Source: a virus. From it: DNA of 64,000 bases. The DNA lies in IMG/VR virus record IMGVR_UViG_3300025674_000016, positions 62,001 through 126,000 of that record; one strand, 5' to 3'. The notes under the pieces were generated by a model. The model ran no database searches. It was not told where the DNA came from and saw only the letters and a program-made list of their open reading frames with translations. This document shows, in pieces, positions 5,590 through 57,901 of the stretch; position 1 is the stretch's first letter; every line of letters starts with the position of its first letter. The position numbers and the translations under genes were made by a program.

Positions 5590-5597
5590 ACTATTTA
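5590..5597 (+). promoter_or_regulatory. Candidate late promoter element ACTATTTA
   Basis: ACTATTTA lies in the 51-base gap before the gene at 5621, 31 bases from its ATG. The same octamer occurs in five other intergenic gaps of this window in the same orientation and at similar distance from start codons. By position it could be a -10 type element; it does not match the T4 late consensus TATAAATA. Confidence 0.45.
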
Positions 5598-5620
5598 ATA
5601 GGTAGTAAGGAGACTAAAAC

Positions 5621-6541
5621 ATGGGTTTTTTAGATAATTCTGGTGATATAATACTAGATGCCGTTCTAACCGATACTGGTAGAATGAGGCTGGCCAAAGG
5701 CGATGGAACTTTTAGAATTGCAAAATTTGCTTTAGGTGATGATGAAATTAATTATGAATCTTATAATAAAAACCATCCAAGCGGCTCAGCATATTTTGAT
5801 CTTGAAGTCCTTCAGACACCTGTTTTTGAAGCTTTCACAAACAACACAAGCAATTTAAAAAGCAAACTAATTTCAATTGCAAGAACAAATCTTCTTTATC
5901 TTCCGGTTCTTAAAATGGATAATCAAACTCAAAACACTAAACCGGAATCTATCAATAGCTTTAATCTCCACTTAGTTGCTGTTGACGAAGAAACAGAAGA
6001 TGCCCTCGGCCTAACTAAAATAGGCTTGTTGGCTGGCGTTACCTTGGCGTCTAGTGATAATTTTATCAGGGTGGATCAAGGACTAGATACAGATGAAATT
6101 TCATATAGTTTTACAATAGATGCGGATTTATATGAATCACAATATATACTAGAAATAGACAATAGATTGGGCCAGATCGTAACCAAACAGGGAGGAATAA
6201 CTCGCGTTTCGTTTATTGATGATGATAACATAGCGAGCTACTATTTCTCACAGGGAACAGATACTGCTTTAATTAGCTCAATAGGCCAATCTAGCGAGCA
6301 AGACTCGCAAGTCATAGATGGGCCAAGAGGATCGCGCATTGAATTTAAAATTAAATCCTCAATAGAACTAACAACTAGTAACTTTTTATTTACACAACTA
6401 GGCGGAAGAGTAGATGTTACTGGTGCTTCCCCCGGCACGGGTTTAACTAATGCTTATTATATTGACAGCACTGTTAGAGTAACTGGTGCAACCACAGGCT
6501 ATAGAATTGATATACCAATCAGATTTATCAAAAAAGCATGA
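5621..6541 (+). CDS. Conserved-type virion protein (GDIILDAVLTDTGR)
   Basis: A 306-residue protein beginning MGFLDNSGDIILDAVLTDTG, with the segment FALGDDEINYE at about residues 37-47. This kind of N-terminus is familiar from structural proteins of marine T4-like and giant phages, but I cannot give it a function. The rest looks beta-rich, with repeated Ser/Thr/Gly stretches typical of tail fibres or tail decoration. A candidate late promoter element lies 31 bases upstream and AAGGAG precedes the ATG, so it starts its own transcription unit. It leads into the two paralogous genes downstream. Confidence 0.55.
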   Translation: MGFLDNSGDIILDAVLTDTGRMRLAKGDGTFRIAKFALGDDEINYESYNKNHPSGSAYFDLEVLQTPVFEAFTNNTSNLKSKLISIARTNLLYLPVLKMDNQTQNTKPESINSFNLHLVAVDEETEDALGLTKIGLLAGVTLASSDNFIRVDQGLDTDEISYSFTIDADLYESQYILEIDNRLGQIVTKQGGITRVSFIDDDNIASYYFSQGTDTALISSIGQSSEQDSQVIDGPRGSRIEFKIKSSIELTTSNFLFTQLGGRVDVTGASPGTGLTNAYYIDSTVRVTGATTGYRIDIPIRFIKKA

Positions 6542-6558
6542 TAAAATAGAGGAATAAA

Positions 6559-7641
6559 ATGGCTACCACTTTTAAAACATTGACAAATAATGATGTAACT
6601 AGCACAAGGACTTTGCTACACGAGGCTATTCCAATTACTGGCACAATAGTCTCTGGTACATATGATGAGTCGGCTACCGCTACTTCAAACATTAAAAATT
6701 ATTCTCATGGACTATTCCAGTCTGTATATGATTATCCATATTTAAGTTCTTCTGCAAATCAGATTTTTGATCTTACTGTTGGTTATTCAAGTGATTCTGG
6801 GCTGTCTGGCTCTAGTGCTGGGCACACGCAGAATGCAAAGAAAATTAATCTATATAATCAAATGGCTCAAGTTCTAGTTGGATTTGATGAAAACGGCAAT
6901 ATTCAGAATTTTGATAGAGATGGAGATCTAACGGCGGGAAACAAGATAACAGAAGCCGTTTTTATTAACTTTGCAAGGCTGCTGACAAAAGACGAAATCA
7001 AAAAAGAATCTTTTACTTTAAAAGTTTTAACGGGAAGCACAACAACTGCTCCAACCGACTTGTTGACAATAAGTGACTATGGAGCAGCAACAGCATATAA
7101 AATTAACTCACCTGCTGGTGAATATGGCGTTTTGTATACTTCATCTGCCACACCAAATTCTAATTCTGGTGTTGGACTGATCTATTATCAAGCTGGTGTT
7201 GCTGTATTGACTGCCTCGATATTTTCTGACGATCCTAGCAGCCCAACAACCTTCTGTGACTTCGGCTCACCAGCAGATTTTAAAACCTCTGCTGAGGGTG
7301 GGATCGAAGCAGCACTTACTGGGTCGAGCATAACCGGATCGGCAGACGGATTAAGAAACAGGTTGAATAATTTACAATTCAACAACACAACAGAACTAAA
7401 CAGTACAATCTATTTCTGCCGAGCAAATCATAATGATTTTAATTATAGCTCAAACCCAACTTATTTAAACGGCAGTAAATTAAGAGTTAAAAACAACTCT
7501 ATGGATTCGCCAGTTAGCTATATAACAACAGTTGGGCTTTATTCAGCAGACAACGAGCTTTTAGCAGTTGCAAAGCTATCAGAGCCTATTAAAAAAACCC
7601 CAGAAACAGAATTAACTTTAAGAGTTAGGCTAGATTATTGA
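6559..7641 (+). CDS. Tail/fibre-type structural protein, paralogue 1
   Basis: A 360-residue, Ser/Thr/Gly/Asn-rich, beta-type protein. Its last 50 residues (YITTVGLYSADNELLAVAKL then SEPIKKTPE) match the end of the next gene product (ISRIGIYDEDKNLIAIAKLA, TPVRKREAD), and both carry a NYSSN motif about 60-110 residues earlier, so the two genes share a C-terminal domain and arose by duplication. An AGAGGA ribosome site precedes the ATG. The role as fibre or tail-periphery protein is inferred from composition and position between large virion proteins. Confidence 0.55.
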   Translation: MATTFKTLTNNDVTSTRTLLHEAIPITGTIVSGTYDESATATSNIKNYSHGLFQSVYDYPYLSSSANQIFDLTVGYSSDSGLSGSSAGHTQNAKKINLYNQMAQVLVGFDENGNIQNFDRDGDLTAGNKITEAVFINFARLLTKDEIKKESFTLKVLTGSTTTAPTDLLTISDYGAATAYKINSPAGEYGVLYTSSATPNSNSGVGLIYYQAGVAVLTASIFSDDPSSPTTFCDFGSPADFKTSAEGGIEAALTGSSITGSADGLRNRLNNLQFNNTTELNSTIYFCRANHNDFNYSSNPTYLNGSKLRVKNNSMDSPVSYITTVGLYSADNELLAVAKLSEPIKKTPETELTLRVRLDY

Positions 7642-7662
7642 TCTACCCTCTAGGCTTAGTTT

Positions 7663-9362: not shown

Positions 9363-10270
9363 AAAACACACTCGGCGGATACACAAGGCAAGGCAAGGAG
9401 CTTATGTTTCATTGCCCCAAGTGTGATCACCACAAAAACAAGCTTTCGGTCAATCTCGATAAAAACTGCTTTAAGTGTTGGGTCTGCGATTATTCAGGAC
9501 GAAAGATAAGCAGGCTGATTCGAAATCATGGCTCATTCTTTGACTACAAAGAGTGGAGAAAGTACGACGACCAGATCGAGCTTTCAGATTTTGATAAATT
9601 GCTTGAGATCTTTGAAGAGGAAGGCGAGCCAACTCTTGATTTGCCAAAAGAGTTTACTTCTCTAGTGGGTGACAATATTTTATTTAGTTCCCTCAACGCT
9701 AGAAAATATCTCAAAGATCGTGGAGTATCCAAGATGGATATCCAGAAGTATATGATGGGGCACTGCCCAAGCGGTAAATATCAAGATTACGTTGTTATCC
9801 CGTCGTTCAATATGCAAGGTGATGTTAATTTTTATGTTACCAGAAACTATAAAGGCGGGTGGCCTAACTATCTCAATCCAAGAGTTCCAAAGAACAGGAT
9901 CATCTTCAACGAGTTGTTTATTGATTTCCATCAAGAAATCACAGTTGTAGAGGGTGTTTTTGATGCAATTAAGGCTGGCAGCAATAGCGTGCCGCTGTTG
10001 GGGTCGTCTTTCTCTGAGGAATCGAAATTATTCCAAAAAATCGTTCTCTACGATACACCTGTCTATTTGGCACTAGATCGAGATGCGGAGGCAAAATCAA
10101 TCAAGATTATTAAGAAACTTTTAAACTATGGCATCGAAGTGTACAAGGTTGATACTTCGGGCTTTAGAGATGTTGGCGAGATGACAAAAGAACAGTTTAA
10201 GACAAGAAAAGAAAATGCAATGCTTATGGACCAAGAAAACACTTTGCTTTATGAGGTGCTATCGGTATGA
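9335..10270 (+). CDS. DNA primase, CHC2-type zinc finger plus Toprim
   Basis: A 311-residue primase. The N-terminus has a zinc-ribbon pattern with Cys27-x2-Cys30 and Cys45-x2-Cys48 (plus Cys51). The Toprim core shows VVEGVFDA with Glu206 and LALDRDAE with Asp248/Asp250, the metal ligands of the DnaG/Toprim family. It would make RNA primers together with the DnaB-like helicase encoded near 61 kb. The start is a TTG inside the RuvC-like gene, preceded by AGCAGGA. It overlaps the next gene by ATGA, so RuvC-like, primase and SbcDC form one coupled operon. Confidence 0.85.
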   Translation: MQTEKIKILKNTLGGYTRQGKELMFHCPKCDHHKNKLSVNLDKNCFKCWVCDYSGRKISRLIRNHGSFFDYKEWRKYDDQIELSDFDKLLEIFEEEGEPTLDLPKEFTSLVGDNILFSSLNARKYLKDRGVSKMDIQKYMMGHCPSGKYQDYVVIPSFNMQGDVNFYVTRNYKGGWPNYLNPRVPKNRIIFNELFIDFHQEITVVEGVFDAIKAGSNSVPLLGSSFSEESKLFQKIVLYDTPVYLALDRDAEAKSIKIIKKLLNYGIEVYKVDTSGFRDVGEMTKEQFKTRKENAMLMDQENTLLYEVLSV

Positions 10271-13200
10271 GAATCCTACATTGTGGTGATATCCACATTA
10301 GAAATCTTAAAAGACATGATGAATACAGACAAGTATTCAGTCAGTTTTATGAAAAGGTAAAAGAATTAAACGTTGACGCCATCTATGTTGCTGGCGACCT
10401 CGCACATACAAAGACACAACTCAGCCCAGAATACTTTGAGTTGGCTTCTGAGTTCTTGAGCTTTCTTGCAGACATCGCGCCAACGATTGTTATCCCAGGC
10501 AACCACGATGGCAACCTGAGATCAACAAAGCGTCAAGATGCCATTACGCCAATTGTTGATGCTCTTGATCACCCAAATCTGGTTCTCTTAAAGAATTCGC
10601 AAGAGATAAAAGTAAAAAAAGGTCTTGTTTTTAACCACCTTTCTGTGTTCGATCAAGATAATTGGATTGAGCCAACTGATCCCGATGCTATTAATATCGC
10701 TCTCTATCATGGCTCAATCAGCGGTTGTATGACTGATAGCGGTTGGGTTATGAAGGAGGGCGAGAATAATATTACTATTTTTGAAGAGTTTGATATGGCA
10801 ATGCTCGGTGATATTCACTTGTCCAATCAATCTCTTGATAAAGAAGGGCGATATAGATATTGTGGTAGTCTTATCCAACAATCGTTTGGCGAGACCAACG
10901 ATAAAGGTTTTCTTGTTTGGGATATCCAGGGCAAGGACGAGTTTACTGTTGAGCACCACATGCTGGAAAACCCCAGCCCATTTATTACAATTGAATTAAA
11001 TGAAGAAGGCAAGATTCCAGATGAAATAAACATCCCAGACAATGCCAGATTAAGACTAGTGTCGGACATTAATCTGCCCCTTGTAACAAGGAACAGAGCA
11101 ATCGATGTTGCCAAAGCTAGGTTTAACCCTGCTTCTGCCTTCTATTATAACCGTGGTAAAAAGCAAAGAAAAGAATTAGAGCAAGTCAAAACAATAAGCC
11201 AAGAAGATACACGGGACTTGGCGGTTCAAGAAAAGTTGATCAAAGAGTTTTTGCAGGACTACAAGGCTAGCGATGAGACTTTAAATAAAATCTTTGCATT
11301 GAACAAAAAGTACAACTCCGCTGTAGAAGAGAATGAAGACGTTTCTAGAAATATTAATTGGAAGCTTAAGTCTGTTTCGTGGGACAACTTATTCAATTAT
11401 GGAGAGGAGAACTATATTGATTTCGAAAAGCTAAACGGCATTGTTGGTATTTTCGGCAAGAACTACTCAGGAAAGTCTAGTATTATTGACTCTATTCTGT
11501 TTTCTCTATTCAACTCTACGTCCAAGAATGAAAGAAAAAATTTGAATATTATCAACCAGAACAGAGAGTGGGCTCAAGGTAAAATCGACATTGAAGTTGA
11601 TAACAAGACCTACTCTATCTTAAGGCAGTGCGAGAAGTACACAAAGAAACTCAAGGGCAAAATAACAAAGGAAGCCAAAACAGATGTGGAGTTTACTGTA
11701 ACAGATAACGCCACTGGAGATGTTGAAGAGCTTAATGGAACATCGAGAAACGATTCTGATAAAAACATCAGAAGAGTATTCGGAACTCTCGATGATTTTC
11801 TTATTACTTCAATGAGTTCCCAGGGTGGAGCACTTTCGTTCATCAACGAAGGGTCAACAAAAAGAAAGGAGCTGCTTGCAAAGTTTTTGGACTTGGAAAT
11901 CTTTGATAAAAAGTTTAAGATGGCAAAAGAAGACGCATCAGACTTGCGAGGTGCCTTAAAAAGAGTGGAAGGGCAAGAATATGCCAATGATATAAAAGAA
12001 GCAAAAGAAAATCTGTCAATCAACGAAAACAAGATCCTAGCTCAAAAAAATAAGTGCAAAAGCTTAGAAGATAACCTAGCAGCAATGCAATCCGAACTTC
12101 AAGAAGTAGAGGCACAGATTAGTTCAATACCTGCTGAGATTGTTAATGTTGCAGAGTTAAAAAATAAATTATCAAACAATCAGAAAAAGTTGGAAAAGAC
12201 GCAAAGAGAAACAGAAGCCAACAACCTTCAGATCAAAGAGTACTCTGCGAAACTTAAGAAGGCTCGTAATTTTCTAAAGGATTTTGATATCGATTCCTAC
12301 AAGAAAAAGCAGCAACAAGTCGAAGAGGTAAATAAAAAGCTTAAAAAACTATCGGAAGATGAGAGGAGCCTTCTTTCCGAGATAAGAACAAAACAGAGAA
12401 AGATTCAACTTTTGAGCGAGGTTCCATGCGGAGATGAGTTTAGAAATTGTAAATTTATTAAAGATGCATATCGAGCAAAAGACGCGATCATTAGTGACAA
12501 CAAGTCCCTAGCCAAGTTAAACGTTGATAAAGGAGCTTATTTGACCGAGATCGAGAGTTTGAACCCTGACCAAGTTGATGACTATTTGCACAAGCATGAA
12601 ATGCTGGTGCGAAAGTGTGAGGGCTGGGAAAACAGTATTTCAATGTTGGAGCTGGGAATAGAAAAAAACAAAGCAATCTGTGAGTCCCTTTCTAAAGAGA
12701 TCGGAGAACTGCAAACAAAAATCGCAGAGTACGAAAAAAATAAAGAAGCTATTGAGAACATGCAAAGCCTGCTTGAGCAAAAGAGTGGAATCACATCCTC
12801 AGTAAAACTTCAGCAAGTTAACTTGGAACATTGCAAATCTAAGGTTCTTGATCTTTACAAGGAGAATGGATCATTAGAACAAAAAATTCAAAGTCTAGAA
12901 GAAGAAAAATTGCAACTAGAAGCTCTTCGTGATGAGTATTCGAGCTACGAGTTGTTTATGCGATGTATGCACTCAAACGGCATTTCTTATGACATCATTA
13001 AAAGAAAGTTGCCCGTCATCAATGATGAGATTGCAAAGGTATTAACAAACGTTGTTGATTTTGAAGTTTTCTTTGAGGAAGACGGCAAAAAACTAAACAT
13101 CTTGATCAAACACCCAAAGTACGATGCAAGACCACTTGAGATGGGCTCAGGAGCAGAAAAAACAATTGCAGCAATGGCAATTAGATTAGCCTTGCTTTCT

Positions 13201-13422
13201 GTGTCAACTTTGCCTCAGCCGGACCTATTTATTCTAGATGAACCTGGAACTGCTCTTGATGAGACAAATATGGAAGGCTTCATCAGAATATTAGATATGG
13301 TGAAAGGTTATTTCAAAACAGTTCTTCTTATTTCCCACCTTGAGTCCTTAAAGGATTGTGTTGACAAGCAGATCACCATCGAGAGAAAAGATGGATATGC
13401 CTACGTCAACTACACAGCCTGA
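10267..13422 (+). CDS. Fused SbcD-SbcC (T4 gp47-gp46) recombination nuclease/ATPase
   Basis: One 1051-residue chain joins two proteins that T4 encodes separately. Residues 1 to about 340 are an Mre11/SbcD-type calcineurin-like nuclease (GDIH at 7-10, AGDLAH, GNHDG, YHGS, GDIHLS). Residues from about 370 are a Rad50/SbcC-type ATPase: Walker A GKNYSGKS at 397-404, a long coiled coil, signature MGSGAEKT near 960, and Walker B FILDEPGTALD near 990. The coiled-coil apex has Cys721-x6-Cys728 instead of the usual zinc-hook CxxC. The complex resects DNA ends for recombination-dependent replication, working with UvsX. No stop or frameshift separates the halves. Confidence 0.9.
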   Translation: MRILHCGDIHIRNLKRHDEYRQVFSQFYEKVKELNVDAIYVAGDLAHTKTQLSPEYFELASEFLSFLADIAPTIVIPGNHDGNLRSTKRQDAITPIVDALDHPNLVLLKNSQEIKVKKGLVFNHLSVFDQDNWIEPTDPDAINIALYHGSISGCMTDSGWVMKEGENNITIFEEFDMAMLGDIHLSNQSLDKEGRYRYCGSLIQQSFGETNDKGFLVWDIQGKDEFTVEHHMLENPSPFITIELNEEGKIPDEINIPDNARLRLVSDINLPLVTRNRAIDVAKARFNPASAFYYNRGKKQRKELEQVKTISQEDTRDLAVQEKLIKEFLQDYKASDETLNKIFALNKKYNSAVEENEDVSRNINWKLKSVSWDNLFNYGEENYIDFEKLNGIVGIFGKNYSGKSSIIDSILFSLFNSTSKNERKNLNIINQNREWAQGKIDIEVDNKTYSILRQCEKYTKKLKGKITKEAKTDVEFTVTDNATGDVEELNGTSRNDSDKNIRRVFGTLDDFLITSMSSQGGALSFINEGSTKRKELLAKFLDLEIFDKKFKMAKEDASDLRGALKRVEGQEYANDIKEAKENLSINENKILAQKNKCKSLEDNLAAMQSELQEVEAQISSIPAEIVNVAELKNKLSNNQKKLEKTQRETEANNLQIKEYSAKLKKARNFLKDFDIDSYKKKQQQVEEVNKKLKKLSEDERSLLSEIRTKQRKIQLLSEVPCGDEFRNCKFIKDAYRAKDAIISDNKSLAKLNVDKGAYLTEIESLNPDQVDDYLHKHEMLVRKCEGWENSISMLELGIEKNKAICESLSKEIGELQTKIAEYEKNKEAIENMQSLLEQKSGITSSVKLQQVNLEHCKSKVLDLYKENGSLEQKIQSLEEEKLQLEALRDEYSSYELFMRCMHSNGISYDIIKRKLPVINDEIAKVLTNVVDFEVFFEEDGKKLNILIKHPKYDARPLEMGSGAEKTIAAMAIRLALLSVSTLPQPDLFILDEPGTALDETNMEGFIRILDMVKGYFKTVLLISHLESLKDCVDKQITIERKDGYAYVNYTA

Positions 13423-13672
13423 CAACCTCATCTACTTCTCTGAAGGTCGCAGAGAAGTTATTATCTATCTTATTACAATCCATAAAAAACTAAGCCCACC
13501 TCAGATCTCTAACCTATGGGAACGCCATAGGTTTCTTTGTATTATCGAGAATAAAATAAGAACAGACAGTATAAACAAGAGAACTTTAAAAAAGATACAA
13601 AAAGAGATAGAATATGCTTATGAAAAATTTGATGATTTGTTTGAAATGATCAAACCTAAACTACTTATATAG
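13391..13672 (+). CDS. Small hypothetical protein after SbcDC
   Basis: A 93-residue basic protein. I chose the ATG at 13391 (or 13397), inside the end of the SbcDC gene, over the upstream TTG at 13358. It is mostly predicted helical, with a Lys-rich C-terminal half (KRTLKKIQKEIEYAYEKF). There is no recognised domain. It is translationally coupled to the recombination operon and is its last gene before the virion genes resume, so a small accessory role in DNA metabolism is possible but unproven. Confidence 0.5.
   Translation: MDMPTSTTQPDNLIYFSEGRREVIIYLITIHKKLSPPQISNLWERHRFLCIIENKIRTDSINKRTLKKIQKEIEYAYEKFDDLFEMIKPKLLI
13660..13667 (+). promoter_or_regulatory. Weak late-element variant ACTACTTA
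   Basis: ACTACTTA differs by one base from the ACTATTTA octamer found before structural genes. It sits 32 bases before the GTG at 13692, exactly at the switch from recombination genes to virion genes. Position makes it a reasonable weak copy. Confidence 0.25.
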
Positions 13673-28937: not shown

Positions 28938-28964
28938 TAAAATTCGCTTTTCAGATTTAAAATC

Positions 28965-28972
28965 ACTATTTA
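28965..28972 (+). promoter_or_regulatory. Candidate late promoter element ACTATTTA
   Basis: In the 69-base gap before the scaffold gene, 42 bases from its ATG. Same octamer and orientation as the other five exact intergenic copies. Confidence 0.45.
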
Positions 28973-31797: not shown

Positions 31798-31832
31798 AAA
31801 AGCCCCTGCTTCCATGTGAGGTAGGGGCTTTT
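31798..31832 (+). terminator. Intrinsic terminator after major capsid gene
   Basis: AAAAGCCCCT (31798-31807) pairs perfectly with AGGGGCTTTT (31823-31832) around a 15-base loop, with a T-rich right edge. It lies 31 bases after the capsid stop and directly before a candidate late promoter. Confidence 0.9.
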
Positions 31833-31843: not shown

Positions 31844-31851
31844 ACTATTTA
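31844..31851 (+). promoter_or_regulatory. Candidate late promoter element ACTATTTA
   Basis: Twelve bases after the capsid terminator and 30 bases before the ATG at 31874. The terminator-then-motif arrangement is the best positional support that the motif starts transcription. Confidence 0.55.
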
Positions 31852-34461: not shown

Positions 34462-34483
34462 TTTTCTTTTGTTAAGTAGCTTA

Positions 34484-34491
34484 ACTATTTA
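34484..34491 (+). promoter_or_regulatory. Candidate late promoter element ACTATTTA
   Basis: In the gap before the sheath gene, 45 bases from its ATG; preceded by AGCTTA and followed by CTAGG. Confidence 0.45.
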
Positions 34492-34528: not shown

Positions 34529-37492
34529 ATGTCTGTTAAAAAGTTTAAATTTGTCTCTCCCGGCGTATCTGTCGCAGAGATTGATAAAAGTAGATTGGCA
34601 ACTCAAATTTTTAGAAGAGGGCCTATTCTTTTTGGTCGTGCAGAGCGCGGCCCTTCGATGAGGCCAGTGAGGGTTGCTTCTTTCTCTGAGTTCGTTGAAA
34701 CATTTGGGGAGCCGATCCCCGGCGGTAGAGGAGGGGATGTCTGGAGGGATGGTAACTATACTTCCACCACCTATGCCTCCTATGCTGCTCAGGCTTATTT
34801 AAGAAATAATGCTCCTGTTACATTTGTTCGATTGCTGGGGAGTAAGCATGGTGACGTAGATGAAGGTCAAGGCGAAGAGACTCCTGGGTGGGATTCTGGC
34901 GCTCATACTGCCACGGGTGGCGGTGCTTACGGTCTTTTTCTTTTTGATTCTGGCACCATTGGAGAAAGAGTTCCCGGTACTCTAGCCGCTGTCTGGTATA
35001 CAAACGATGCTAACACCATTATCACCCTAACTGGTAACTTCGCACATGACAGCGCTAACGCGACTTCTTCTATTGGAGCTTTGGTCCCCTCTGTTGGAGA
35101 CTCAAGGGAGTTTAAGGCGGAAATTAGAAACGGAGCAACAGTATCTGAAAAAATAACTTTTAACTTTGACAGAGCTTCTGACAAGTTTATTAGAAAAGTT
35201 TTTAACACAAACCCAACACTAACCAACGGTGCAATGATCGCCTCCAATCAACTTAAAAAATATTGGCTAGGCGAAACCTTTGAGGGTGCATTAGATAAAG
35301 TTGGGACTGGCGCTGGTGGTGTTCTAACCGCCGCCAGCTCTTCTGAGGGCGATACTCACGGTGCTATTCTTGTTTTGAGCAATAACGACACTACCAAGAA
35401 GAGATTTGGAAATCTTAAGCAAGATACAAGTGATTCTAAGAGTGGGTGGGTTATCTGTCAAGATCTAGGAGCACCAGAAAATTATATTGCAGAGAACTCA
35501 CAAAAATTATTTAGGTTTATCACAAGAAATTCTGGTGAGTGGGATTCTTCAAACCTAAAAGTTTCCATTCAAGATATCAAGCCTTCGAACAGTGAATTCA
35601 ACCCTTATGGTAGCTTTACTGTGGTGGTTAGAAGCACATCAGATAACGACTATTCGCCTCTAGTTAGAGAAAGATTTGAGAACGTGAATTTAAATCCAAG
35701 TTCTAATAGATATATTTCTAGAGTTATTGGTGATAAGTATGTGCTCTGGGATGAAACAGAAAGAAGGCTAAGAGAATATGGAACTTATGATAATATCTCT
35801 AGCTTTGTTAGAGTGGAAGTGTCAACAGAAGTAGAGGCAGGAGGTGATCCAAGATGGCTTCCTGCTGGCTTCTTTGGCCCACCTAGGTTTAAAAAATTCA
35901 CAGTATGCACTGGTTCTGCGCCAATAACATTTGGGGCTTCTTTAACATCGTCTGTAGATCCCAATGCAATGGGGCTCCCAGCCAGCCAGTTAACAGCGCA
36001 TGCTCACCTATCATCATCAGCAACAGGGTTCCACCTTGTTCTTTCTAAGAAGCCAAGCGCCTTGGCTGTTGACAACTTCCTTGGAGATATTACTTTTCCC
36101 AAGTTTAATCTTAGAAATTCTAGCGTGGACTCAACTTTAAGAGGCCCCACTACAGCGTATTTTGGAGTTGATACTCGCAGAGGTGCAAATAGCAGGCTCT
36201 TTGATGAAACTTCGATTGATTTGGCGAGACCAAAGCCTCAAGGCGTAGCAAGCCACGACACTGATAGCAATACAGAAAATAGTTTTATCTTTACGCTAGA
36301 TGATCTAAGCGGAAGTAGCGATTTTGGAGACAATACTACAATTATTGATCTAGTTTATGTATCAGGCTCCAGAGCAAGCAACACCTCAGTGACTGCTGTG
36401 GGTCTAAACGGTTCAAAAGCAAGTATCAATGCTTCTTTTACAAGCTTATTGGAGTATGGTTATAACAGATTTACACTACCACTATTTGGTGGCTTTGACG
36501 GTTTCGATGTAACAGAAAGAGAACCCTTAAGAAACTCTTTAATTCAAGATGACGACTCAGACACAACAAACTATGTTGTCAATACCTATAGGCGAGCAAT
36601 CGACATGATCCAAGACGTGGAGAATGTTGATGTTAACTTGGCTGCTGTGCCTGGCTTAACAAATGCAACACTAACATCAAGGCTAATTGATAACTGCGAG
36701 CAGCGCGGGGATGCAATGGCTGTTATTGATGTTGAGGGTGATTATACTCCAATCTATGAAGCTAAATCTGACACCCAAGAAAGAGATAGACTTGGGTCTG
36801 TAAGCACAGCAGTAAGCTCTTTGAAGGCCAGAAACCTCAACACCTCGTATGGTGCGGCGTATTACCCTTGGGTGCTTGTCAGGGATTCTGTTAGCACTGG
36901 CCAGATTATATGGATGCCACCTAGTGTTGTTGCTCTGGGAGTTATCGGAAATAGCGCAAATAGAAGTGAATTATGGTTCGCGCCAGCAGGGTTCAACAGA
37001 GGTGGGCTTACAAACGGAGACTCTGGCTTAACAGTTGTTGGTGTAAGACAAAAACTCTCTGCAAGAGACAGAGACAATCTCTATGAACAACACATCAACC
37101 CAATCGCTAGCTTCCCTGCGGAGGGCATTGTTATCTTTGGGCAAAAAACCCTTCAAGTAACGCAGTCTGCTCTTGACAGGATCAATGTTAGAAGGTTGAT
37201 GATTTTCCTTAAAAAGGAAATCTCATTCGCAGCCAGCCAGATTCTCTTCGACCAAAACGTCAGAGAAACTTGGTCTAGGTTCACTGGTCAAGTCAAGCCT
37301 TTCCTTGAGAGTGTTAAATCTAGATTTGGTTTGGTTGACTTTAGGCTGGTTTTGGACGAAACCACCACTACCCCCGACCTGATTGATAGAAATACTGTTT
37401 ATGCAAAGGTGTTTATCAAGCCAGCAAGGGCAATTGAATATATTGCACTAGACTTTGTTCTTACGGCAACTGGTGCTTCTTTTGACGAATAA
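34529..37492 (+). CDS. Contractile tail sheath protein (T4 gp18-like)
   Basis: A 987-residue sheath protein, longer than T4 gp18 (659), with extra material in the middle (about 120-600). The N-terminus shows the sheath start (SPGVSVAEIDKSR; RRGPILFGRAERGP). The conserved C-terminal core contains PLFGGFDGFDVTEREPL, IDMIQDVENVDVNLAAVPG, YYPWVLVRDS, PPSVVALGVIGNSANRSELW and RINVRRLMIFLKKEIS. It contracts to drive the tube through the host envelope. AAGGAG precedes the ATG. Tube protein gene follows. Confidence 0.95.
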   Translation: MSVKKFKFVSPGVSVAEIDKSRLATQIFRRGPILFGRAERGPSMRPVRVASFSEFVETFGEPIPGGRGGDVWRDGNYTSTTYASYAAQAYLRNNAPVTFVRLLGSKHGDVDEGQGEETPGWDSGAHTATGGGAYGLFLFDSGTIGERVPGTLAAVWYTNDANTIITLTGNFAHDSANATSSIGALVPSVGDSREFKAEIRNGATVSEKITFNFDRASDKFIRKVFNTNPTLTNGAMIASNQLKKYWLGETFEGALDKVGTGAGGVLTAASSSEGDTHGAILVLSNNDTTKKRFGNLKQDTSDSKSGWVICQDLGAPENYIAENSQKLFRFITRNSGEWDSSNLKVSIQDIKPSNSEFNPYGSFTVVVRSTSDNDYSPLVRERFENVNLNPSSNRYISRVIGDKYVLWDETERRLREYGTYDNISSFVRVEVSTEVEAGGDPRWLPAGFFGPPRFKKFTVCTGSAPITFGASLTSSVDPNAMGLPASQLTAHAHLSSSATGFHLVLSKKPSALAVDNFLGDITFPKFNLRNSSVDSTLRGPTTAYFGVDTRRGANSRLFDETSIDLARPKPQGVASHDTDSNTENSFIFTLDDLSGSSDFGDNTTIIDLVYVSGSRASNTSVTAVGLNGSKASINASFTSLLEYGYNRFTLPLFGGFDGFDVTEREPLRNSLIQDDDSDTTNYVVNTYRRAIDMIQDVENVDVNLAAVPGLTNATLTSRLIDNCEQRGDAMAVIDVEGDYTPIYEAKSDTQERDRLGSVSTAVSSLKARNLNTSYGAAYYPWVLVRDSVSTGQIIWMPPSVVALGVIGNSANRSELWFAPAGFNRGGLTNGDSGLTVVGVRQKLSARDRDNLYEQHINPIASFPAEGIVIFGQKTLQVTQSALDRINVRRLMIFLKKEISFAASQILFDQNVRETWSRFTGQVKPFLESVKSRFGLVDFRLVLDETTTTPDLIDRNTVYAKVFIKPARAIEYIALDFVLTATGASFDE

Positions 37493-37503: not shown

Positions 37504-37511
37504 ACTATTTA
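37504..37511 (+). promoter_or_regulatory. Candidate late promoter element ACTATTTA
   Basis: Between sheath and tube genes, 39 bases before the tube GTG. A separate promoter for the tube, needed in high copy, is plausible. Confidence 0.5.
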
Positions 37512-37542: not shown

Positions 37543-38133
37543 GTGGCTTTTTTTACAGAAAAAACACTCAACCCAAAAAGAAAATTTAGATGGGTTGTCG
37601 ATATCGGTACTGGTAATGATACTAATAGTATTTTAAGAGTGGCTGCAAAGTCTGTTCAGAAACCAAACTATACACTAGAGACGACACAGCATAAATTTTT
37701 AAATCATCAATTTAATTACCCGAACAGGGTTATCTGGCAGCCTATTGATATCACATTTGTTGATCACCTAGGTCGAGGAGGAACCAGTGTCTCGTCGAGA
37801 CTTTACGCCTTGTTACTATCTTCAGGATATCAAATCCCTGCAAACCCCTTCAACTGTGAGCTATCGCCAACTAAAAACAGAGCAGTTGGGGCGCTAGGCA
37901 GTGTAAAGATCGTTCAACTATCAGGTGATGCAGGACGCGCACGATTTACAGTTGATGAAATAGACGGCAGAGCGCCGGGTGCCCCCCAACGGTCTGATGT
38001 AATTGAAACATGGACCCTAGGTAACGCCTTTATTTCCAAAGTTACTTTTGGAGATTTGTCATATGATGATGATGGATTGGTGGAGATCCAATGCACCTTT
38101 ACTTATGACTATGCTGAATTTCAAGGCAAATGA
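37543..38133 (+). CDS. Tail tube protein (T4 gp19-like)
   Basis: A 196-residue tail tube protein starting at GTG with CGGAGG upstream. Length and context match T4 gp19 (163 residues) directly after the sheath. Landmarks: LNPKRKFRWVVDIG, SVQKPNYTLETTQHKFLNH, FNYPNRVIWQPIDITFVDH, and the C-terminal IQCTFTYDYAEFQ, which match the tube/Hcp-like beta-barrel family. Rings of this protein form the DNA conduit inside the sheath. Confidence 0.92.
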   Translation: MAFFTEKTLNPKRKFRWVVDIGTGNDTNSILRVAAKSVQKPNYTLETTQHKFLNHQFNYPNRVIWQPIDITFVDHLGRGGTSVSSRLYALLLSSGYQIPANPFNCELSPTKNRAVGALGSVKIVQLSGDAGRARFTVDEIDGRAPGAPQRSDVIETWTLGNAFISKVTFGDLSYDDDGLVEIQCTFTYDYAEFQGK

Positions 38134-39199: not shown

Positions 39200-39207
39200 A
39201 CTAGTTA
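39200..39207 (+). promoter_or_regulatory. Weak late-element variant ACTAGTTA
   Basis: One mismatch to ACTATTTA, in the 55-base gap before the gene at 39237, 37 bases from its TTG. Confidence 0.3.
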
Positions 39208-39236: not shown

Positions 39237-39569
39237 TTGGAAAAGCTAAATGAAGACAAATTGCAGCCAGTTATTATTGATCTGACCAAAGCAGATAAAT
39301 TAAATGAAAGTTGGTATAGAATGTTTGGAGCCTGGATTAAAATGTTTCTGGGACACACCTTTGATTTAAATGATTATAATTTTAAAGTTAGAGGAACAAA
39401 AAGGCAACTAGATAGCTTGGCAAAAGCCCTAGGGGCTGAGAAGAAATATTTAAAAGCGTTTACAAGATCCGGCCTCAACAGCCCCAGCACCCTTAAAAGT
39501 AAATCCAAACTTCAAAAAGCAATCTCTATGTTTGAAAAGGCAACCGGTATAAAGTGGCCTTTAAAGTAA
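39237..39569 (+). CDS. Small protein before tape measure
   Basis: A 110-residue basic protein from a TTG start with AGAGAGG eight bases upstream. It contains WYRMFGAWIKMFLGHTFDL and a Lys-rich helical end (LKSKSKLQKAISMFEKATG). The first residues EKLNED include an LNE. No recognised family. It lies between hub assembly genes and the tape measure, so a tail assembly role is possible. Confidence 0.5.
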   Translation: MEKLNEDKLQPVIIDLTKADKLNESWYRMFGAWIKMFLGHTFDLNDYNFKVRGTKRQLDSLAKALGAEKKYLKAFTRSGLNSPSTLKSKSKLQKAISMFEKATGIKWPLK

Positions 39570-48131: not shown

Positions 48132-49313
48132 GTGCTTTTCCAAACACTCGATGACAAGAAAGAATGCGTTGGCATCTACGCAAACAACGAGATCCAAAAC
48201 ACAATTCCAACAGGCATAACAAAAACCTGGTCATATGCTGGATATCTGGAAGATCTCCAGATTGAGTATGCCAGTCTATACTGCGACGGTAAACCCATAA
48301 GCCAAGTTGTGCCAGAACACTTGCAGCAAGAATGGGCCGAGATCAGCGCCAAGATGAAAGCTTTTTTTAAAGCATTTACAACAGCAAAAATCGACTTAAA
48401 ACTGGTTTGCTTCTATGACATGGTGCCACGAGACGTTCTGCTTGAATGGTGCGATTTAAAGTCGAAAATCTGCGACTACATCTTTGAAAATTATGAAAGA
48501 CCAGCCAACTATGAGTTCTTGGTCGAGCTAACCAAGCTAACTGAAAAGATTAAATACCAACAAGTCAATATTGACTTATCAGCAATAAGCTCTCCGCTTG
48601 AGTCTTATCGCTCTAGGTCTTTTATCAACAAGATGAAAAAGGTAAATCCCTTTATCGAGTACAATATCTTTGGAAGCGTTACTGGCAGGCTAAGCACAAA
48701 GCCAAATAGCTTTCCTATCATGACGATGGATAAGAAGTATAGAAAAATAGTTAAGCCTCACAATGATTGGTTTGTGGAACTGGACTTTAATGCTGCTGAG
48801 TTGCGAACTTTTATTGCTCTTAACAAAAGAGATCAGCCTCAAGAGGATTTGCACGAGTGGAACATAAAAAATATCTTTAGGGGTTTCGGCACTCGTGAGG
48901 AAGCCAAGACAAGATTGTTTGCTTGGCTCTATAATCCCAAGTCAGAGGACTATCTGCTCAACAGAGAGTATGATCGAGATGCGATTATTAATGAATATTT
49001 CGATGGAACCCATGTAAGCACGCCTTATGAGAGAAAAATCAGGGCAATACCAAAAAATGCCCTGAATTACTTGATTCAAAGCACTTCAAGCGACTTATTC
49101 TTGAGGCAAGTTATAAAAATAAACAAGCTTCTGCAAGATAGGGCTAGCTTTATAAGTTGGACCCTTCATGATTCTGTTATGATCGACTTAAAAGATGAAG
49201 ATAAGCCCATTTTAAAAGAAATCATAGCTCAGTTTGGTGATACTGACTTTGGAAAATACTTGGTTAACGTGTCTGCTGGCAAAAACTTTGGAGATTTAAA
49301 GAAAATCAAATGA
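48132..49313 (+). CDS. Minimal family-A DNA polymerase (polymerase core only)
   Basis: A 393-residue protein with GTG start. It has the family-A motifs in order: TGRLS (184-188), motif A LDFNAAELR with Asp218 and Glu223, the O-helix pattern Arg255-x3-Lys259-x3-Phe263-x3-Tyr267 (same spacing as E. coli Pol I 754/758/762/766), QSTSSD near 316-321, and motif C His346-Asp347-Ser348. The second motif C acid (Glu883 in Pol I) is Ser. The fingers between motif A and the O helix look short, and no exonuclease domain is present. T4-type phages use a family-B polymerase, not seen here. Role: replication, repair or a divergent replicative core. Confidence 0.85.
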   Translation: MLFQTLDDKKECVGIYANNEIQNTIPTGITKTWSYAGYLEDLQIEYASLYCDGKPISQVVPEHLQQEWAEISAKMKAFFKAFTTAKIDLKLVCFYDMVPRDVLLEWCDLKSKICDYIFENYERPANYEFLVELTKLTEKIKYQQVNIDLSAISSPLESYRSRSFINKMKKVNPFIEYNIFGSVTGRLSTKPNSFPIMTMDKKYRKIVKPHNDWFVELDFNAAELRTFIALNKRDQPQEDLHEWNIKNIFRGFGTREEAKTRLFAWLYNPKSEDYLLNREYDRDAIINEYFDGTHVSTPYERKIRAIPKNALNYLIQSTSSDLFLRQVIKINKLLQDRASFISWTLHDSVMIDLKDEDKPILKEIIAQFGDTDFGKYLVNVSAGKNFGDLKKIK

Positions 49314-50978: not shown

Positions 50979-50998
50979 TCCTTTTTAACCTAACCCAA

Positions 50999-51020: not shown

Positions 51021-51034
51021 TTCAAGGAGACAAA

Positions 51035-52123
51035 ATGGTTGACATTGAAGCAATGCGCAAATTGCTTAACAAAAAGGCAGGTATGCCCGTTGCGCACAAT
51101 CTTAAACAACAAAACCCAACAGAGGTAAAAGATTGGATTCCAACTGGCTCTCGCTGGTTGGACTCAATTATTTGTCGTGGCAAGTTGGCCGGTATTCCTG
51201 TTGGAAAGGTGGTTGAGATTGCAGGGCTGGAAGCAACTGGCAAGAGCTATATGGCCGCCAAGATCGCAAGCAACGCCCAGCGTCTAGGTCATACTGTAGT
51301 TTATTTTGACTCAGAGTCAGCGATTGACCCAAGCTTTCTTGCAAATGCTGGGTGCGATGTCGAGACCCTTATCTATGTTCAGGCCCAGACTGTTGAGTTT
51401 GTGTTGGAGTCCATTGAGGAGTTCTTGAAGACCGGAGAACAGTTTTTATTTATTTGGGATTCTCTTGCTCTGACGCCTGCTATTTCCGATGTTGAGGGCG
51501 ACTTTAATCCCCTATCATCTATGGCTGTCAAAGCAAGAATCTTGGCAAAGGCAATGTCAAAGATTACGATCCCAATTGCCAATTCTCAATCAACCTTATT
51601 GGTCCTCAACCAGTTAAAGACGAACATCACTAGGAACCCCAACATGGCCCTCGTTGAGCCCTACGTTACTCCTGGTGGCAAGGCGATGGCTTATACTTAC
51701 AGCCTTCGCATCTGGCTAACTGGTCGTAAATCAAAGGCGTCCTATATCAACGACGACAACGGATTCAGAATCGGCTCAGAAGTAAAGGCTACGTTGAAGA
51801 AATCTCGCTTTGGAACGGCAGGAAGGCAAGCAACGTTTAAGATCCTATGGGGCGATGAGGTGAGGATCTTAGACGAAGAAAGTTGGCTGGAGGCTATTAA
51901 AAAAAGCAAGAACATCACGATCAAGGGCTCGTGGTATTACATGAATATGGGCAACGGAGAGGAAATGAAGTTCCAGCCCGGACGTTGGATGGATATGATG
52001 GAGAATCCAGAGTTCAAAGCTCGCGTACTAGAGATCATGGAAGAAGAGGTTATCCTCAACTTCAAGAACCGCGAAGGAGATTCTCAAGGCTTTTATGATA
52101 TTGACGGTGATGAAGATGAATAA
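51035..52123 (+). CDS. uvsX: RecA/UvsX-type recombinase
   Basis: A 362-residue strand-exchange ATPase. Walker A is GLEATGKS (64-71); Walker B is FLFIWDSLA with Asp142; MALVEPYVTPGGKAMAYT is the L2-like segment, and LVLNQLKTNI precedes it. T4 UvsX has 391 residues. With the gp32-like SSB just upstream and SbcDC near 10 kb it forms the recombination-dependent replication set. CAAGGAG lies before the ATG. The acidic end (GDEDE) overlaps the next gene. Confidence 0.92.
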   Translation: MVDIEAMRKLLNKKAGMPVAHNLKQQNPTEVKDWIPTGSRWLDSIICRGKLAGIPVGKVVEIAGLEATGKSYMAAKIASNAQRLGHTVVYFDSESAIDPSFLANAGCDVETLIYVQAQTVEFVLESIEEFLKTGEQFLFIWDSLALTPAISDVEGDFNPLSSMAVKARILAKAMSKITIPIANSQSTLLVLNQLKTNITRNPNMALVEPYVTPGGKAMAYTYSLRIWLTGRKSKASYINDDNGFRIGSEVKATLKKSRFGTAGRQATFKILWGDEVRILDEESWLEAIKKSKNITIKGSWYYMNMGNGEEMKFQPGRWMDMMENPEFKARVLEIMEEEVILNFKNREGDSQGFYDIDGDEDE

Positions 52124-54044
52124 AAACTTTATCTTCATATTGTTCGCAGTCGCCTTCTTGTCTTGTCAAGAGGGTGGCAGGTCCGTTGAAACCCCCTGTG
52201 AGAAGGGGGATATTATGTTGTGTGATGGTGAGACAGTTGGCAACTGCGAGCCTGGATATCGTGTGTGTTTTGAGAATGTTTTGGACAATCCAGTAACAAC
52301 CTATTGGAGCGAATGTATAGACCGCAAAGACCCCGAAGAAGAACGCTGCAACTATAGTGATGACGATTGTGATGGTGAGATAGATGAGGGTGTTGCAAAC
52401 CTTTGTGGCAAGTGTGGTCTTGAGCCACAAGAACTTTGCAATAAAAATGATGACGATTGCGATGGTGAGATAGATGAAGGTTTCGCTGGGCAAAGAGAGC
52501 TTTGCAATGGTATTGATGAAGACTGTGACGGGGTAATTGATGAGGGTCTAAGCAAGCGTCAAGCTTGCGAGCCACCAAATGTTCAAGCAGGAATAATTTA
52601 TAATGATGACCCCGGCTCAAGGTCTTCTTGTTTAAGGGGCTGGACAGAGTGCAGAGAAGGCAGTTGGACACCTTGTGCAGAGTGGCAAGGACCAACGCCT
52701 GAAATCTGTGATGGCATCGACAACAATTGTAATGGCGACACAGATGAAATTGACGCACTTAGAAGGCCATGTGGATTTTCTAATATAGGGCAGTGCGAAT
52801 TTGGTATTGAGATCTGCTTTGACAACGATATTATCTGTGTTGATAGTGTTGGACCGCAAAATGAAATTTGCGATGGAATCGACAATGACTGCGACTGGTA
52901 TATTGATGAAGAATTAGCTCGTGAGTGTTCAACCATTTGCGGCGAAGGAGTGGAGAGGTGCCAAGAAGGCACTTGGATTGACTGCACTGCCCCACAGCCA
53001 GTTGCTGAAGTTTGTAATGGTGTTGATGATGACTGCGATGGCCTAGTGGATGAAGATATTTTTTGTGAGTGTCAAGCAGGTGCAATGCAGCCTTGTATTG
53101 CAGAGCCTTGTGGCTGGGGCACTCAAGTTTGTTTAGAGGAGGGAGTTTGGGATGTTTGTGTTGGCGGAGTTGTTCAAGCTGAGCTTTGCAATAATCACGA
53201 TGACAATTGCAACCAACAGGTTGATGAGAACCTTTCAAGACCGTGTTATGAAGGGCCTGAGAACACTCAGGGTGTTGGAGTATGCGTTGGAGGCATAGCA
53301 GAGTGCAGAGAGGGGGAGTGGCAAGATTGTGTCGGCCAAGTTGTTCCCAATCAAGAATTATGCGACGGCATCGATAACGACTGTGATGGAAACATTGATA
53401 ACCTTGAAAGATTTTTTGAAAAGGTCGATATGGTCTTCGTTGTTGATGTATCCGGTTCGATGAATAGTTTTATTGATTCTATAGCGACTGGTATCACAAG
53501 ATATGTGAGCAGTATTCGAGGGCAAAATCATAAATTTGGTTTGATTTTGTATGGATCAAACTTCTATACTGATTATGGAGAATCTATTTTATTTTTACAA
53601 CTCTCTGAAATAAGCGATCTCCTGCTTGCTTTGGCTAATATAATTCTTAGTGGACAAGATGAGCCTTCGATTGATGCGATTTTCTTTGCATCCAACCCAT
53701 CGAATGAGTTACAATTGGCCTGGAGATCAGACGCAACTCCAATTATTATTTTGCTTAGCGATGAGGAACCACAAACTAGGCTGTTTTTAACTCAACAAGA
53801 TTTACAGGGCTTAACAAGAACTTGTTTGCTGCCTGGTTGCAATTCGCAAACAAACGATAATTGGACAGACGGAGACCCACTTGAACTTTTTGCTTTTGTT
53901 GAGTCATCATCGATTATCTTTTGGGAAAGTGCAATATTCGCAGAAGGCAACAGAGTATTCAACATTCAGAGATTGCTCTTTGACGACATGCTTGAGGCAG
54001 ATTTAGAACTAATTTTCAGGGAGGTGTGCAGAGAAACAGAATGA
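52116..54044 (+). CDS. Secreted lipoprotein with MopE-type repeats and VWA domain
   Basis: 642 residues from the ATG at 52116, inside the recombinase end. Residues 1-17 form a lipoprotein signal (NFIFILFAVAFLSC, Cys17). Then come eight repeats of the CNxxDDDCDGxxDEG type (for example CNYSDDDCDGEIDEG and CNGIDEDCDGVIDEG), the putative metal-binding MopE-like repeats of secreted proteins in Myxococcota and relatives, alternating with Cys-rich linkers. The last 200 residues are a von Willebrand A domain with MIDAS VVDVSGSMNSF and IILLSDEEPQT. It would sit on the cell surface or outer membrane. No virion role is evident; superinfection blocking, adhesion or lateral origin are options. Confidence 0.88.
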   Translation: MNKNFIFILFAVAFLSCQEGGRSVETPCEKGDIMLCDGETVGNCEPGYRVCFENVLDNPVTTYWSECIDRKDPEEERCNYSDDDCDGEIDEGVANLCGKCGLEPQELCNKNDDDCDGEIDEGFAGQRELCNGIDEDCDGVIDEGLSKRQACEPPNVQAGIIYNDDPGSRSSCLRGWTECREGSWTPCAEWQGPTPEICDGIDNNCNGDTDEIDALRRPCGFSNIGQCEFGIEICFDNDIICVDSVGPQNEICDGIDNDCDWYIDEELARECSTICGEGVERCQEGTWIDCTAPQPVAEVCNGVDDDCDGLVDEDIFCECQAGAMQPCIAEPCGWGTQVCLEEGVWDVCVGGVVQAELCNNHDDNCNQQVDENLSRPCYEGPENTQGVGVCVGGIAECREGEWQDCVGQVVPNQELCDGIDNDCDGNIDNLERFFEKVDMVFVVDVSGSMNSFIDSIATGITRYVSSIRGQNHKFGLILYGSNFYTDYGESILFLQLSEISDLLLALANIILSGQDEPSIDAIFFASNPSNELQLAWRSDATPIIILLSDEEPQTRLFLTQQDLQGLTRTCLLPGCNSQTNDNWTDGDPLELFAFVESSSIIFWESAIFAEGNRVFNIQRLLFDDMLEADLELIFREVCRETE

Positions 54045-54268: not shown

Positions 54269-54270
54269 AA

Positions 54271-55191: not shown

Positions 55192-55207
55192 AGGATTTTT
55201 ACAAAAT

Positions 55208-55752: not shown

Positions 55753-55753
55753 A

Positions 55754-56756: not shown

Positions 56757-57067
56757 ACGAGGCAAAGAGAATAAAAAAGTTCCTGCGAAACAAAGACAAT
56801 AAAGTTATTGTAAAAATTGTTGAGACAGACCCTTGGGGTGGAGATGTGGTCTTGACCACTACATTGACTTATGATGATCTGGTAAAAGAAACCTTGCTAT
56901 GGGAACAAAAGTTCAAGCAGGACTACGGATGCTTACCGGGAATTGTTATGGATGCCCCCTGGCTTATCTACTTTGTCACAATAGAGAATAAAGAAGGCGA
57001 GGAGCTTTATAAAAAAACTTTCTGGAAGAAGGAAGAAACAAGAGAATTCCTTAATGACGAGGGATGA
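56753..57067 (+). CDS. Small hypothetical protein
   Basis: 104 residues from ATG 56753, which overlaps the previous stop; an in-frame TTG at 56747 is the other option. It has a basic start (EAKRIKKFLRNKDNKVIVKI), a Trp-containing middle and a charged end. No family recognised. Confidence 0.45.
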   Translation: MNEAKRIKKFLRNKDNKVIVKIVETDPWGGDVVLTTTLTYDDLVKETLLWEQKFKQDYGCLPGIVMDAPWLIYFVTIENKEGEELYKKTFWKKEETREFLNDEG

Positions 57068-57471
57068 TGATGAATAGGTTTTACCAGAGACTTGTGGACA
57101 TTACGTCTAATGAGCGGTATTTTTACAGTGATTTCGATATCACTTTCGGAAAGCAGAAAGGGCCAAACCCAGATCCCATCGAGGTTCGTTGTAGTTTTCA
57201 AGATTTGGTAAAGCTTTGTGATGACATTGAATCTGAAGGGTTCACGGGAATCATTGAGTTGGACCCTAGAAGGCTTTTGTTTGGAGTTCGCTTCGTGACC
57301 CATGTCGGAGATCCCGATGAGATTGTAAAGGTTTTTTGTGACGTGAGGGGTATCCACCTCATCATCCAAAGCCTTAAATTGAGTTATCCCGATGTAGTCG
57401 AAGAATTTAACACTCTTTTTTCATCTGAAGGTGAGCCTTTCTTTTCCAAGTTGGCTTTGAGGTGGAGGTGA
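57064..57471 (+). CDS. Small hypothetical protein
   Basis: A 135-residue alpha/beta protein (CSFQDLVKLCDDIESEG; IIELDPRRLLFGVRF; IHLIIQSLKL). The start is one of three ATGs in a row at 57064-57072, overlapping the previous stop; GAGGG is immediately upstream, which favours the later ATG codons. No known function. Confidence 0.45.
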   Translation: MMMNRFYQRLVDITSNERYFYSDFDITFGKQKGPNPDPIEVRCSFQDLVKLCDDIESEGFTGIIELDPRRLLFGVRFVTHVGDPDEIVKVFCDVRGIHLIIQSLKLSYPDVVEEFNTLFSSEGEPFFSKLALRWR

Positions 57472-57475
57472 TAAA

Positions 57476-57664
57476 ATGAAACCAGGTAATTTGGTAAAGC
57501 CTAAACACAAATACTCCTACAACGAAGCGGGGATTGGGGTATTGCTTGAAATAGAAAAAGGCTTTTATAGACATAATGATTATTTCCAAGATCGTTTGAC
57601 AATATATTGGCTCCACGGGGAGGTAACTAGAGAACCTGATTCTTATGTGGAGGTGATAAAATGA
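57476..57664 (+). CDS. Small beta-barrel-type protein
   Basis: A 62-residue protein beginning MKPGNLVKPKHKYSYNEAG then IGVLLEIEKGF, which resembles tiny phage proteins with an SH3-like barrel. GGAGGTGATAAA precedes the ATG, a very strong ribosome site. It is followed by an ATGA-coupled gene with the same leader sequence before its start. Confidence 0.45.
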   Translation: MKPGNLVKPKHKYSYNEAGIGVLLEIEKGFYRHNDYFQDRLTIYWLHGEVTREPDSYVEVIK

Positions 57665-57894
57665 ATTGTGAAGATTGTGAAAAAGAAGTAAGGGCGGCAA
57701 CTGCTCCTATGTGGGTGACAATTGAACACCAAGCATTACAACTACGACAGATCTCTCAACTATGCTGGGAGATCGTAAATGAGTTGCAAGAAGCAGACAA
57801 CCTCCTAGTTGGTGAATACCCAGACGAGTTTTCAAAAGTCTTTGATATTGCAGGTGAAATCGAGGATTGGTTAGTGAGGACAAAGAAAAAATAA
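57661..57894 (+). CDS. Small hypothetical protein
   Basis: A 77-residue protein with an N-terminal CEDCEKEV (one CxxC) and a helical acidic remainder (ELQEADNLLVGEYPDEF). GGAGGTGATAAA precedes the start exactly as at the gene before, so the translation start region is duplicated. It is the last gene before a candidate late element. Confidence 0.45.
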   Translation: MNCEDCEKEVRAATAPMWVTIEHQALQLRQISQLCWEIVNELQEADNLLVGEYPDEFSKVFDIAGEIEDWLVRTKKK

Positions 57895-57901
57895 CTATTT
57901 A
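57894..57901 (+). promoter_or_regulatory. Candidate late promoter element ACTATTTA
   Basis: Overlaps the last base of the preceding stop codon and lies 32 bases before the TTG of the leader-family gene at 57926. A late-type signal inside an otherwise early-looking region supports a virion role for that gene. Confidence 0.5.

What the first reader, a model, noticed from the sequence alone, without database searches (positions are those of the whole stretch)
5590..57901. Recurrent ACTATTTA octamer before structural genes: candidate late promoter different from T4
Exact ACTATTTA occurs at 5590, 28965, 31844, 34484, 37504 and 57894, always on + in intergenic DNA and 30-45 bases before a start codon. 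One-mismatch forms lie at 13660 and 39200. The copy at 31844 directly follows the capsid terminator. Starts served are scaffold, neck, sheath, tube, a virion protein and leader-family genes. T4 late promoters are TATAAATA; this motif is not that on the + strand.
Basis: seen in the sequence. Interest (0 to 1): 0.75.

Follow-up and report, generated by a model that had tools for sequence, protein, structure and literature searches.

The report
Late-gene promoter of Far-T4-like phages
A large group of uncultured marine relatives of phage T4 appears to switch on its particle-building genes with its own eight-letter DNA signal (ACTATTTA) and its own version of T4's late sigma factor, while two helper proteins that T4 needs for this step cannot be found in its genomes.

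Summary
ACTATTTA occurs 8 times in the window, all on + (3.06 expected); 6 copies lie in the 3% noncoding DNA, 22-37 nt before a start. In the whole 155.7-kb virus record it is 17:0 by strand. Across 121 dereplicated related loci it is the commonest intergenic 8-mer (144 on +, 1 on -), and it precedes the sheath gene in 42 of 42 non-redundant relatives with otherwise diverged upstream DNA. Sites often follow terminators, and a G is favoured where +1 is expected. It matches T4's TATAAATA in the same -13..-6 register at only 4 of 8 bases. A gp55-like sigma factor is encoded outside the window (record 35330-36043) and in every long relative tested. T4's gp33 and sliding clamp gp45 are not detected in nine relatives or two isolates, though found in T4-type controls. 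Sheath and scaffold-position promoters also carry a fixed-spacing upstream GG-N-TTTT-like element, which T4 late promoters lack. The sigma has a conserved C-terminal domain of unknown fold; its reading of that element is speculation. Most likely: a clamp-independent variant of T4-type late transcription. No RNA data exist, so promoter activity is inferred.

The parts
5590..5597 (+). ACTATTTA, putative late -10 element, 23 nt before the 306-aa ORF 5621-6541 (unknown function)
   Evidence: no upstream GG-N-TTTT-like element
28965..28972 (+). ACTATTTA, 34 nt before the ORF in scaffold position (29007-30011) ahead of the major capsid gene
   Evidence: 11 relatives have the motif before the orthologous gene
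28945..28951 (+). upstream (-35-like) element of the scaffold-position promoter, CGCTTTT at -20..-14 from the motif
   Evidence: PWM trained on sheath promoters of relatives scores 6.7 at the expected offset
31844..31851 (+). ACTATTTA, 22 nt before the neck (Ad2-like) gene 31874-33127
   Evidence: 14 relatives
31798..31832 (+). intrinsic terminator of the capsid gene, ending just upstream of the 31844 site; its GGGGCTTTT tail overlaps the place of the upstream element
   Evidence: fold -24.1 kcal/mol, z -3.8
34484..34491 (+). ACTATTTA, 37 nt before the tail sheath gene 34529-37492
   Evidence: exact motif in 42/42 non-redundant relatives
34464..34470 (+). upstream (-35-like) element of the sheath promoter, TTCTTTT at -20..-14 from the motif
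   Evidence: TTT at this offset in 41 of 47 relatives; own score 2.7
37504..37511 (+). ACTATTTA, 31 nt before the tail tube gene 37543-38133; no upstream element
   Evidence: 19 relatives
39200..39207 (+). ACTAGTTA, one-mismatch copy before ORF 39237-39569
   Evidence: exact motif at the orthologous place in 22 relatives
57894..57901 (+). ACTATTTA, 24 nt before the 98-aa ORF 57926-58222 (unknown function)
13660..13667 (+). ACTACTTA, one-mismatch copy shortly before a GTG-start small ORF; not verified by comparison
   Evidence: sequence printed

Best explanation
ACTATTTA is the -10-type element of the late promoters of a broad clade of Far-T4-like myoviruses. It occupies the place of T4's TATAAATA (-13..-6, with +1 about 6 nt after its end) and is read by the phage's own gp55-like sigma factor on host RNA polymerase, firing structural and lysis operons, often restarting transcription just after a terminator. 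Shown from sequence: enrichment, direction, spacing, conservation, target genes, and presence of the sigma. Inferred: that transcription starts there, that it is late, and that the gp55-like protein recognises the element. The T4 co-activator gp33 and clamp gp45 are not detected, so activation is probably not by the sliding clamp. A subset of promoters (sheath and scaffold position) has a second, fixed-distance upstream element (GG-N-TTTT-like).
For: Own record: 17:0 strand ratio, 10 of 17 copies in 5% noncoding DNA, 22-37 nt before starts. Relatives: 144 + intergenic, 1 - intergenic, 35 in 1.31 Mb of coding DNA; most frequent intergenic 8-mer. Sheath upstream: 42/42 exact, shuffle rate 1%. 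G preferred 6 nt after the motif end (50%). Targets: sheath, tube, neck, scaffold position, terminase-small-like, endolysin; in this record no exact copy lies before the genes identified as primase, SbcC/D, SSB, UvsX, family-A polymerase or DnaB, and sigma70-like TTGACA-N17 sites occur elsewhere, one before SSB. gp55-like sigma: phrog_234 E 6.5e-5 in own record; 21/21 clade members match; hhalign to T4-type gp55 E 3.7e-9, 4e-11 for the N-terminal part against 0.5 for a reversed decoy; the clade profile finds annotated gp55 of three T4-type phages. Same strand-biased motif in all sigma-bearing long contigs. The method recovers TATAAATA in T4 as control, and CTATTTAT/ACTATTTA in Flavobacterium phage immuto, which carries the same sigma family. 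gp33 and gp45 not found while controls ring. Upstream element cross-validates between promoter classes.
Against: No RNA 5' ends and no temporal data. Start prediction used a home-made gene caller. The closest isolate, Mel-JY01, shows ATATTTAT rather than ACTATTTA, and RM378 shows neither the motif nor the sigma. The upstream element is absent at tube and several other sites. Seven of 17 copies in the record lie inside genes. Recognition by the gp55-like protein rests on co-occurrence and homology, not binding.
Confidence: 0.82

Rival explanations
1. The motif is a host sigma-factor promoter element (host sigma70 or an alternative sigma), not read by a phage factor.
For: TATTTA has some likeness to a -10 hexamer, and the sheath and scaffold-position sites have an upstream T-rich element at roughly -35 spacing.
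Against: Clear sigma70-like sites in the record look different (TTGACA-N17-TATAAT). Most motif sites lack TTGACA. Almost the same element is used by a Flavobacterium phage carrying the same phage sigma, whose host sigma reads a different promoter (my own knowledge).
Confidence: 0.1
2. The sites are T4-type late promoters read on the minus strand: the reverse complement TAAATAGT overlaps TATAAATA(G), giving antisense transcription.
For: CTATTTATA is the reverse complement of TATAAATAG; T4 and cyanophage records carry ACTATTTA mainly on the reverse strand, probably for this reason.
Against: 1428 of 1431 called genes in relatives are on +, and the motif is always on + before their starts. The two bases that would complete TATAAATA are only weakly conserved, whereas AC is conserved. 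Starts lie at promoter-to-gene distance on the + side.
Confidence: 0.02
3. The motif acts in RNA or as another DNA signal (leader stability, translational operator, processing site, packaging or recombination signal).
For: It lies close upstream of ribosome-binding sites.
Against: Distance to the start varies from 37 to 73 nt before the same gene (sheath) in relatives; many copies directly follow terminators with T-runs, where a new start is needed; G is favoured at the expected +1.
Confidence: 0.06

Closest known systems
T4 late promoter TATAAATA with gp55, gp33 and gp45 (PMC2988020)
   Same: 8-bp -10-type element before structural genes in the same -13..-6 register with T-11, A-10, T-7, A-6; a gp55-family sigma is encoded.
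   Different: Sequence ACTATTTA; upstream element at sheath and scaffold-position promoters; gp33 and gp45 not detected; sigma has about 100 extra conserved C-terminal residues.
Aeromonas phage Aeh1 late promoter (A/G)CTAAATA (PMC1524935, PMC2988020)
   Same: AC at -13/-12, T-11, A-10, T-7, A-6: six of eight positions.
   Different: TT instead of AA at -9/-8; Aeh1 belongs to the T4-type phages whose core set includes genes 45 and 55 (PMC2988020).
Flavobacterium phages immuto (MW353175-MW353177)
   Same: Same sigma subfamily (28% identity, C-terminal domain shared) and ACTATTTA/CTATTTAT before structural genes.
   Different: First two bases looser (A/G, C/A), following TA more constant; sigma annotated only as hypothetical protein; I found no published promoter analysis.
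Microcystis phage Mel-JY01
   Same: Best isolate hit for sheath and capsid; same sigma subfamily.
   Different: Upstream motif ATATTTAT.
Far-T4 phages and Rhodothermus phage RM378 (PMC4360716)
   Same: gp23-type capsid and sheath relatives; PMC4360716 reports no detectable T4 core transcription-regulation genes in Far-T4 fragments.
   Different: Here the late sigma is found; RM378 itself has neither the sigma nor the motif.

Membership tests
T4-type late transcription system | TATAAATA at -13..-6 before late genes | tested here: not met
   TATAAATA at background; ACTATTTA instead, 4 of 8 positions shared
T4-type late transcription system | element precedes virion and lysis genes, not replication genes | tested here: met
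T4-type late transcription system | no conserved -35 element | tested here: not met
   fixed-offset upstream element at sheath (41/47 TTT at -16) and scaffold-position sites (11/11); absent at tube
T4-type late transcription system | gp55-family sigma | tested here: met
T4-type late transcription system | gp33 co-activator | tested here: not met
   phrog_254 finds T4, S-RIM44, phiN3 and OC; none of 9 clade records, immuto or Mel-JY01
T4-type late transcription system | gp45 sliding clamp | tested here: not met
   phrog_223 finds T4, S-RIM44 and phiN3; none of 9 clade records, immuto or Mel-JY01; an unrelated clamp family is not excluded
T4-type late transcription system | transcripts start there late, coupled to replication | not testable with these tools
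   no RNA data
host sigma70 promoter | TTGACA about 17 bp before a TATAAT -10 | tested here: not met
   true sigma70-like sites look different
Fused sigma (gp55-like region 2 plus sigma domain 4 or gp33) | C-terminal domain homologous to sigma domain 4 or gp33 | tested here: not met
   no relation by hhalign or Pfam, no PDB fold match (E 0.95 or worse); structural analogy not excluded
Far-T4 phages | capsid protein groups with the Far-T4/RM378 clade | tested here: inconclusive
   best named hits are Mel-JY01, two uncultured phages and RM378; no tree was built

The most novel reading that the evidence does not exclude
These phages use a one-piece late sigma factor: a gp55-type domain reads ACTATTTA, and the appended C-terminal domain replaces gp33 and the sliding clamp and reads the upstream GG-N-TTTT element. 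That would be the fused late sigma which the T4 field asked for and reported as not found (PMC2988020), with late transcription uncoupled from a T4-type clamp.
Probability: 0.3. Interest if true: 0.8.

Novelty: new variant of a known kind. Interest (0 to 1): 0.62.

Why it matters
Far-T4-type phages are widespread in metagenomes, but their transcription programme was unknown; the 2015 survey found no T4 core transcription-regulation genes (PMC4360716). This gives a promoter, its likely reader and a map of late operons for hundreds of uncultured genomes. It also bears on a stated open question, why no fused late sigma has been found (PMC2988020), by pointing to a natural gp55-type sigma with an extra domain in genomes without detectable gp33 or gp45. 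The cultured immuto phages make it testable.

Tried and rejected
Host sigma70 reading, antisense T4 promoter and RNA-level signal: see rivals. One-mismatch copies as a class: no excess on + over -. C-terminal domain as sigma domain 4 or gp33: no support from Pfam, PDB fold search or hhalign with reversed decoys (the phiN3 gp33 sequence in that set was probably read in the wrong frame, so the gp33 test rests mainly on three sequences). The full-length model's best PDB matches are mostly sigma factors but weak (E 0.07 or worse, pTM 0.43), so I use it only as mild support for region 2. blastn of the capsid region against named phages gave nothing. Literature searches for CTATTTA with late promoter found no phage report.

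Full report
Setting. The window is bases 62001-126000 of a 155,702-base IMG/VR virus record in which 174 of 178 called genes are on +. It carries gp23-type capsid, sheath, tube, baseplate-hub, neck Ad2, portal, large terminase and protease genes. No named phage is similar by DNA across the capsid region. By protein the best named relatives are Microcystis phage Mel-JY01, uncultured large phages and Rhodothermus phage RM378, which points to the Far-T4 group (PMC4360716); I built no tree.

Observation. ACTATTTA occurs 8 times in the window, all on + (3.06 expected, 0 of 100 shuffles reach 8). The six listed copies are correct; two more lie inside ORFs (3934, 27013). In the whole record it is 17:0 by strand, against 9:6 for the reversed pattern. 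Ten copies are in the 5% noncoding DNA, 22-37 nt before a start, P about 1.5e-9, first of 280 permutations of its letters. An unbiased count of intergenic 7-mers puts CTATTTA first (13 against 0.85).

Conservation. A sheath search gave 80 loci and a sigma search 80 more. In 121 dereplicated loci (1.37 Mb) ACTATTTA is the most frequent 8-mer of 53 kb of intergenic DNA: 144 on +, 1 on -; coding DNA, 25 times larger, holds 35. Before the sheath gene it is exact in 42 of 42 non-redundant relatives, at 37-73 nt, with a shuffle rate of 1% and no reverse-complement copy. Long contigs show the same strand bias (23:0, 22:3, 28:2, 24:3, 3:19 and so on).

Targets. The copies precede sheath, tube, neck, the scaffold-position gene, a terminase-small-like gene next to the sigma, and ORF 39237 in relatives (terminase match weak, E 0.006). 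In the record one copy (1062) precedes an endolysin. Primase, SbcC/D, SSB, UvsX, a family-A polymerase fragment and DnaB are identified and no exact copy lies before them. Host-type TTGACA-N17 sites occur elsewhere, one before SSB.

Anatomy. Over 141 aligned sites, bases just after the motif are T/A-rich and a G (50%) stands 6 nt after its end, the +1 position if the motif occupies -13..-6 as in T4 (register from PMC1524935). Upstream, sheath and scaffold-position sites carry GG-N-TTTT-like sequence at -20..-14: TTT at -16 in 41 of 47 and 11 of 11. These have no hairpin. A matrix trained on sheath sites picks the same offset in 8 of 11 scaffold-position sites, a different place in the genome. 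Tube sites lack it. Neck and ORF-39237 sites instead follow terminators whose GGGG-TTTT tails fall in nearly the same place.

The likely reader. ORF 35330-36043 of the record (237 aa, outside the window) is a gp55-like sigma: phrog_234 E 6.5e-5, 21 of 21 clade members match with best E 2.6e-7, hhalign against nine T4-type gp55 proteins E 3.7e-9, 4e-11 for the N-terminal part with reversed decoy 0.5. The clade profile finds annotated gp55 in S-RIM44, phiN3 and OC, and relatives in immuto, Mel-JY01 and LR756508. About 100 further C-terminal residues are conserved and give a confident helical model (pLDDT 88.6) without a known relative.

What is missing. gp45 (phrog_223) and gp33 (phrog_254) are found in T4, S-RIM44 and phiN3 (gp33 also in OC; gp45 was not run on OC), but in none of nine clade records or the isolates immuto and Mel-JY01. 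The clade records may be fragments; the isolates are annotated as complete genomes. Mel-JY01 does carry a clamp-loader relative, so an unrelated clamp is possible there.

Controls. The same k-mer method recovers TATAAATA in T4 (7 against 0.37), CTATTTAT (10 against 0.15) and ACTATTTA (7 against 0.28) in immuto, and ATATTTAT (8 against 0.75) in Mel-JY01. Immuto infects Flavobacterium, so the element tracks the phage sigma rather than one host.

Conclusion. A diverged T4-type late promoter with a gp55-type sigma is the best explanation (0.82). It is not a full member of the T4 system: consensus, gp33, gp45 and absence of an upstream element all fail. The idea of a single fused late sigma is attractive because PMC2988020 asks why none has been found, but C-terminal homology to sigma domain 4 or gp33 was tested and not met, so it stays a hypothesis (0.3).

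Noticed in passing
record 147590-155370 (window coordinates 85590-93370, beyond the window): Nine copies of GAATAAA-N12/13-CTGT(C/T)(C/T)AAGG with short complementary arms (CCTCA...TGAGG), several just before small ORFs and some before tRNA-like sequence: a second promoter class or an RNA leader.
   Followed up: partly
window 50137, 58219; record 126018, 141232, 12996, 23434: Host-type sigma70-like sites; 50137 lies before the SSB gene.
   Followed up: partly
window 19406, 19877, 20413, 57926, about 13684: Several small ORFs share an N-terminus like MKITKSKLKQLIKEE; possibly a capsid-targeting leader cleaved by the prohead protease.
   Followed up: no
window 48132-49313: Family-A DNA polymerase C-terminal part as a 393-aa ORF, perhaps a split polymerase as in RM378.
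   Followed up: no
window 52095-54044: 649-aa protein with five MopE-type metal-binding repeats and a VWA domain.
   Followed up: no
window 10267-13422: One 1051-aa ORF matches both SbcD-like and SbcC-like families, so gp47 and gp46 appear fused.
   Followed up: no
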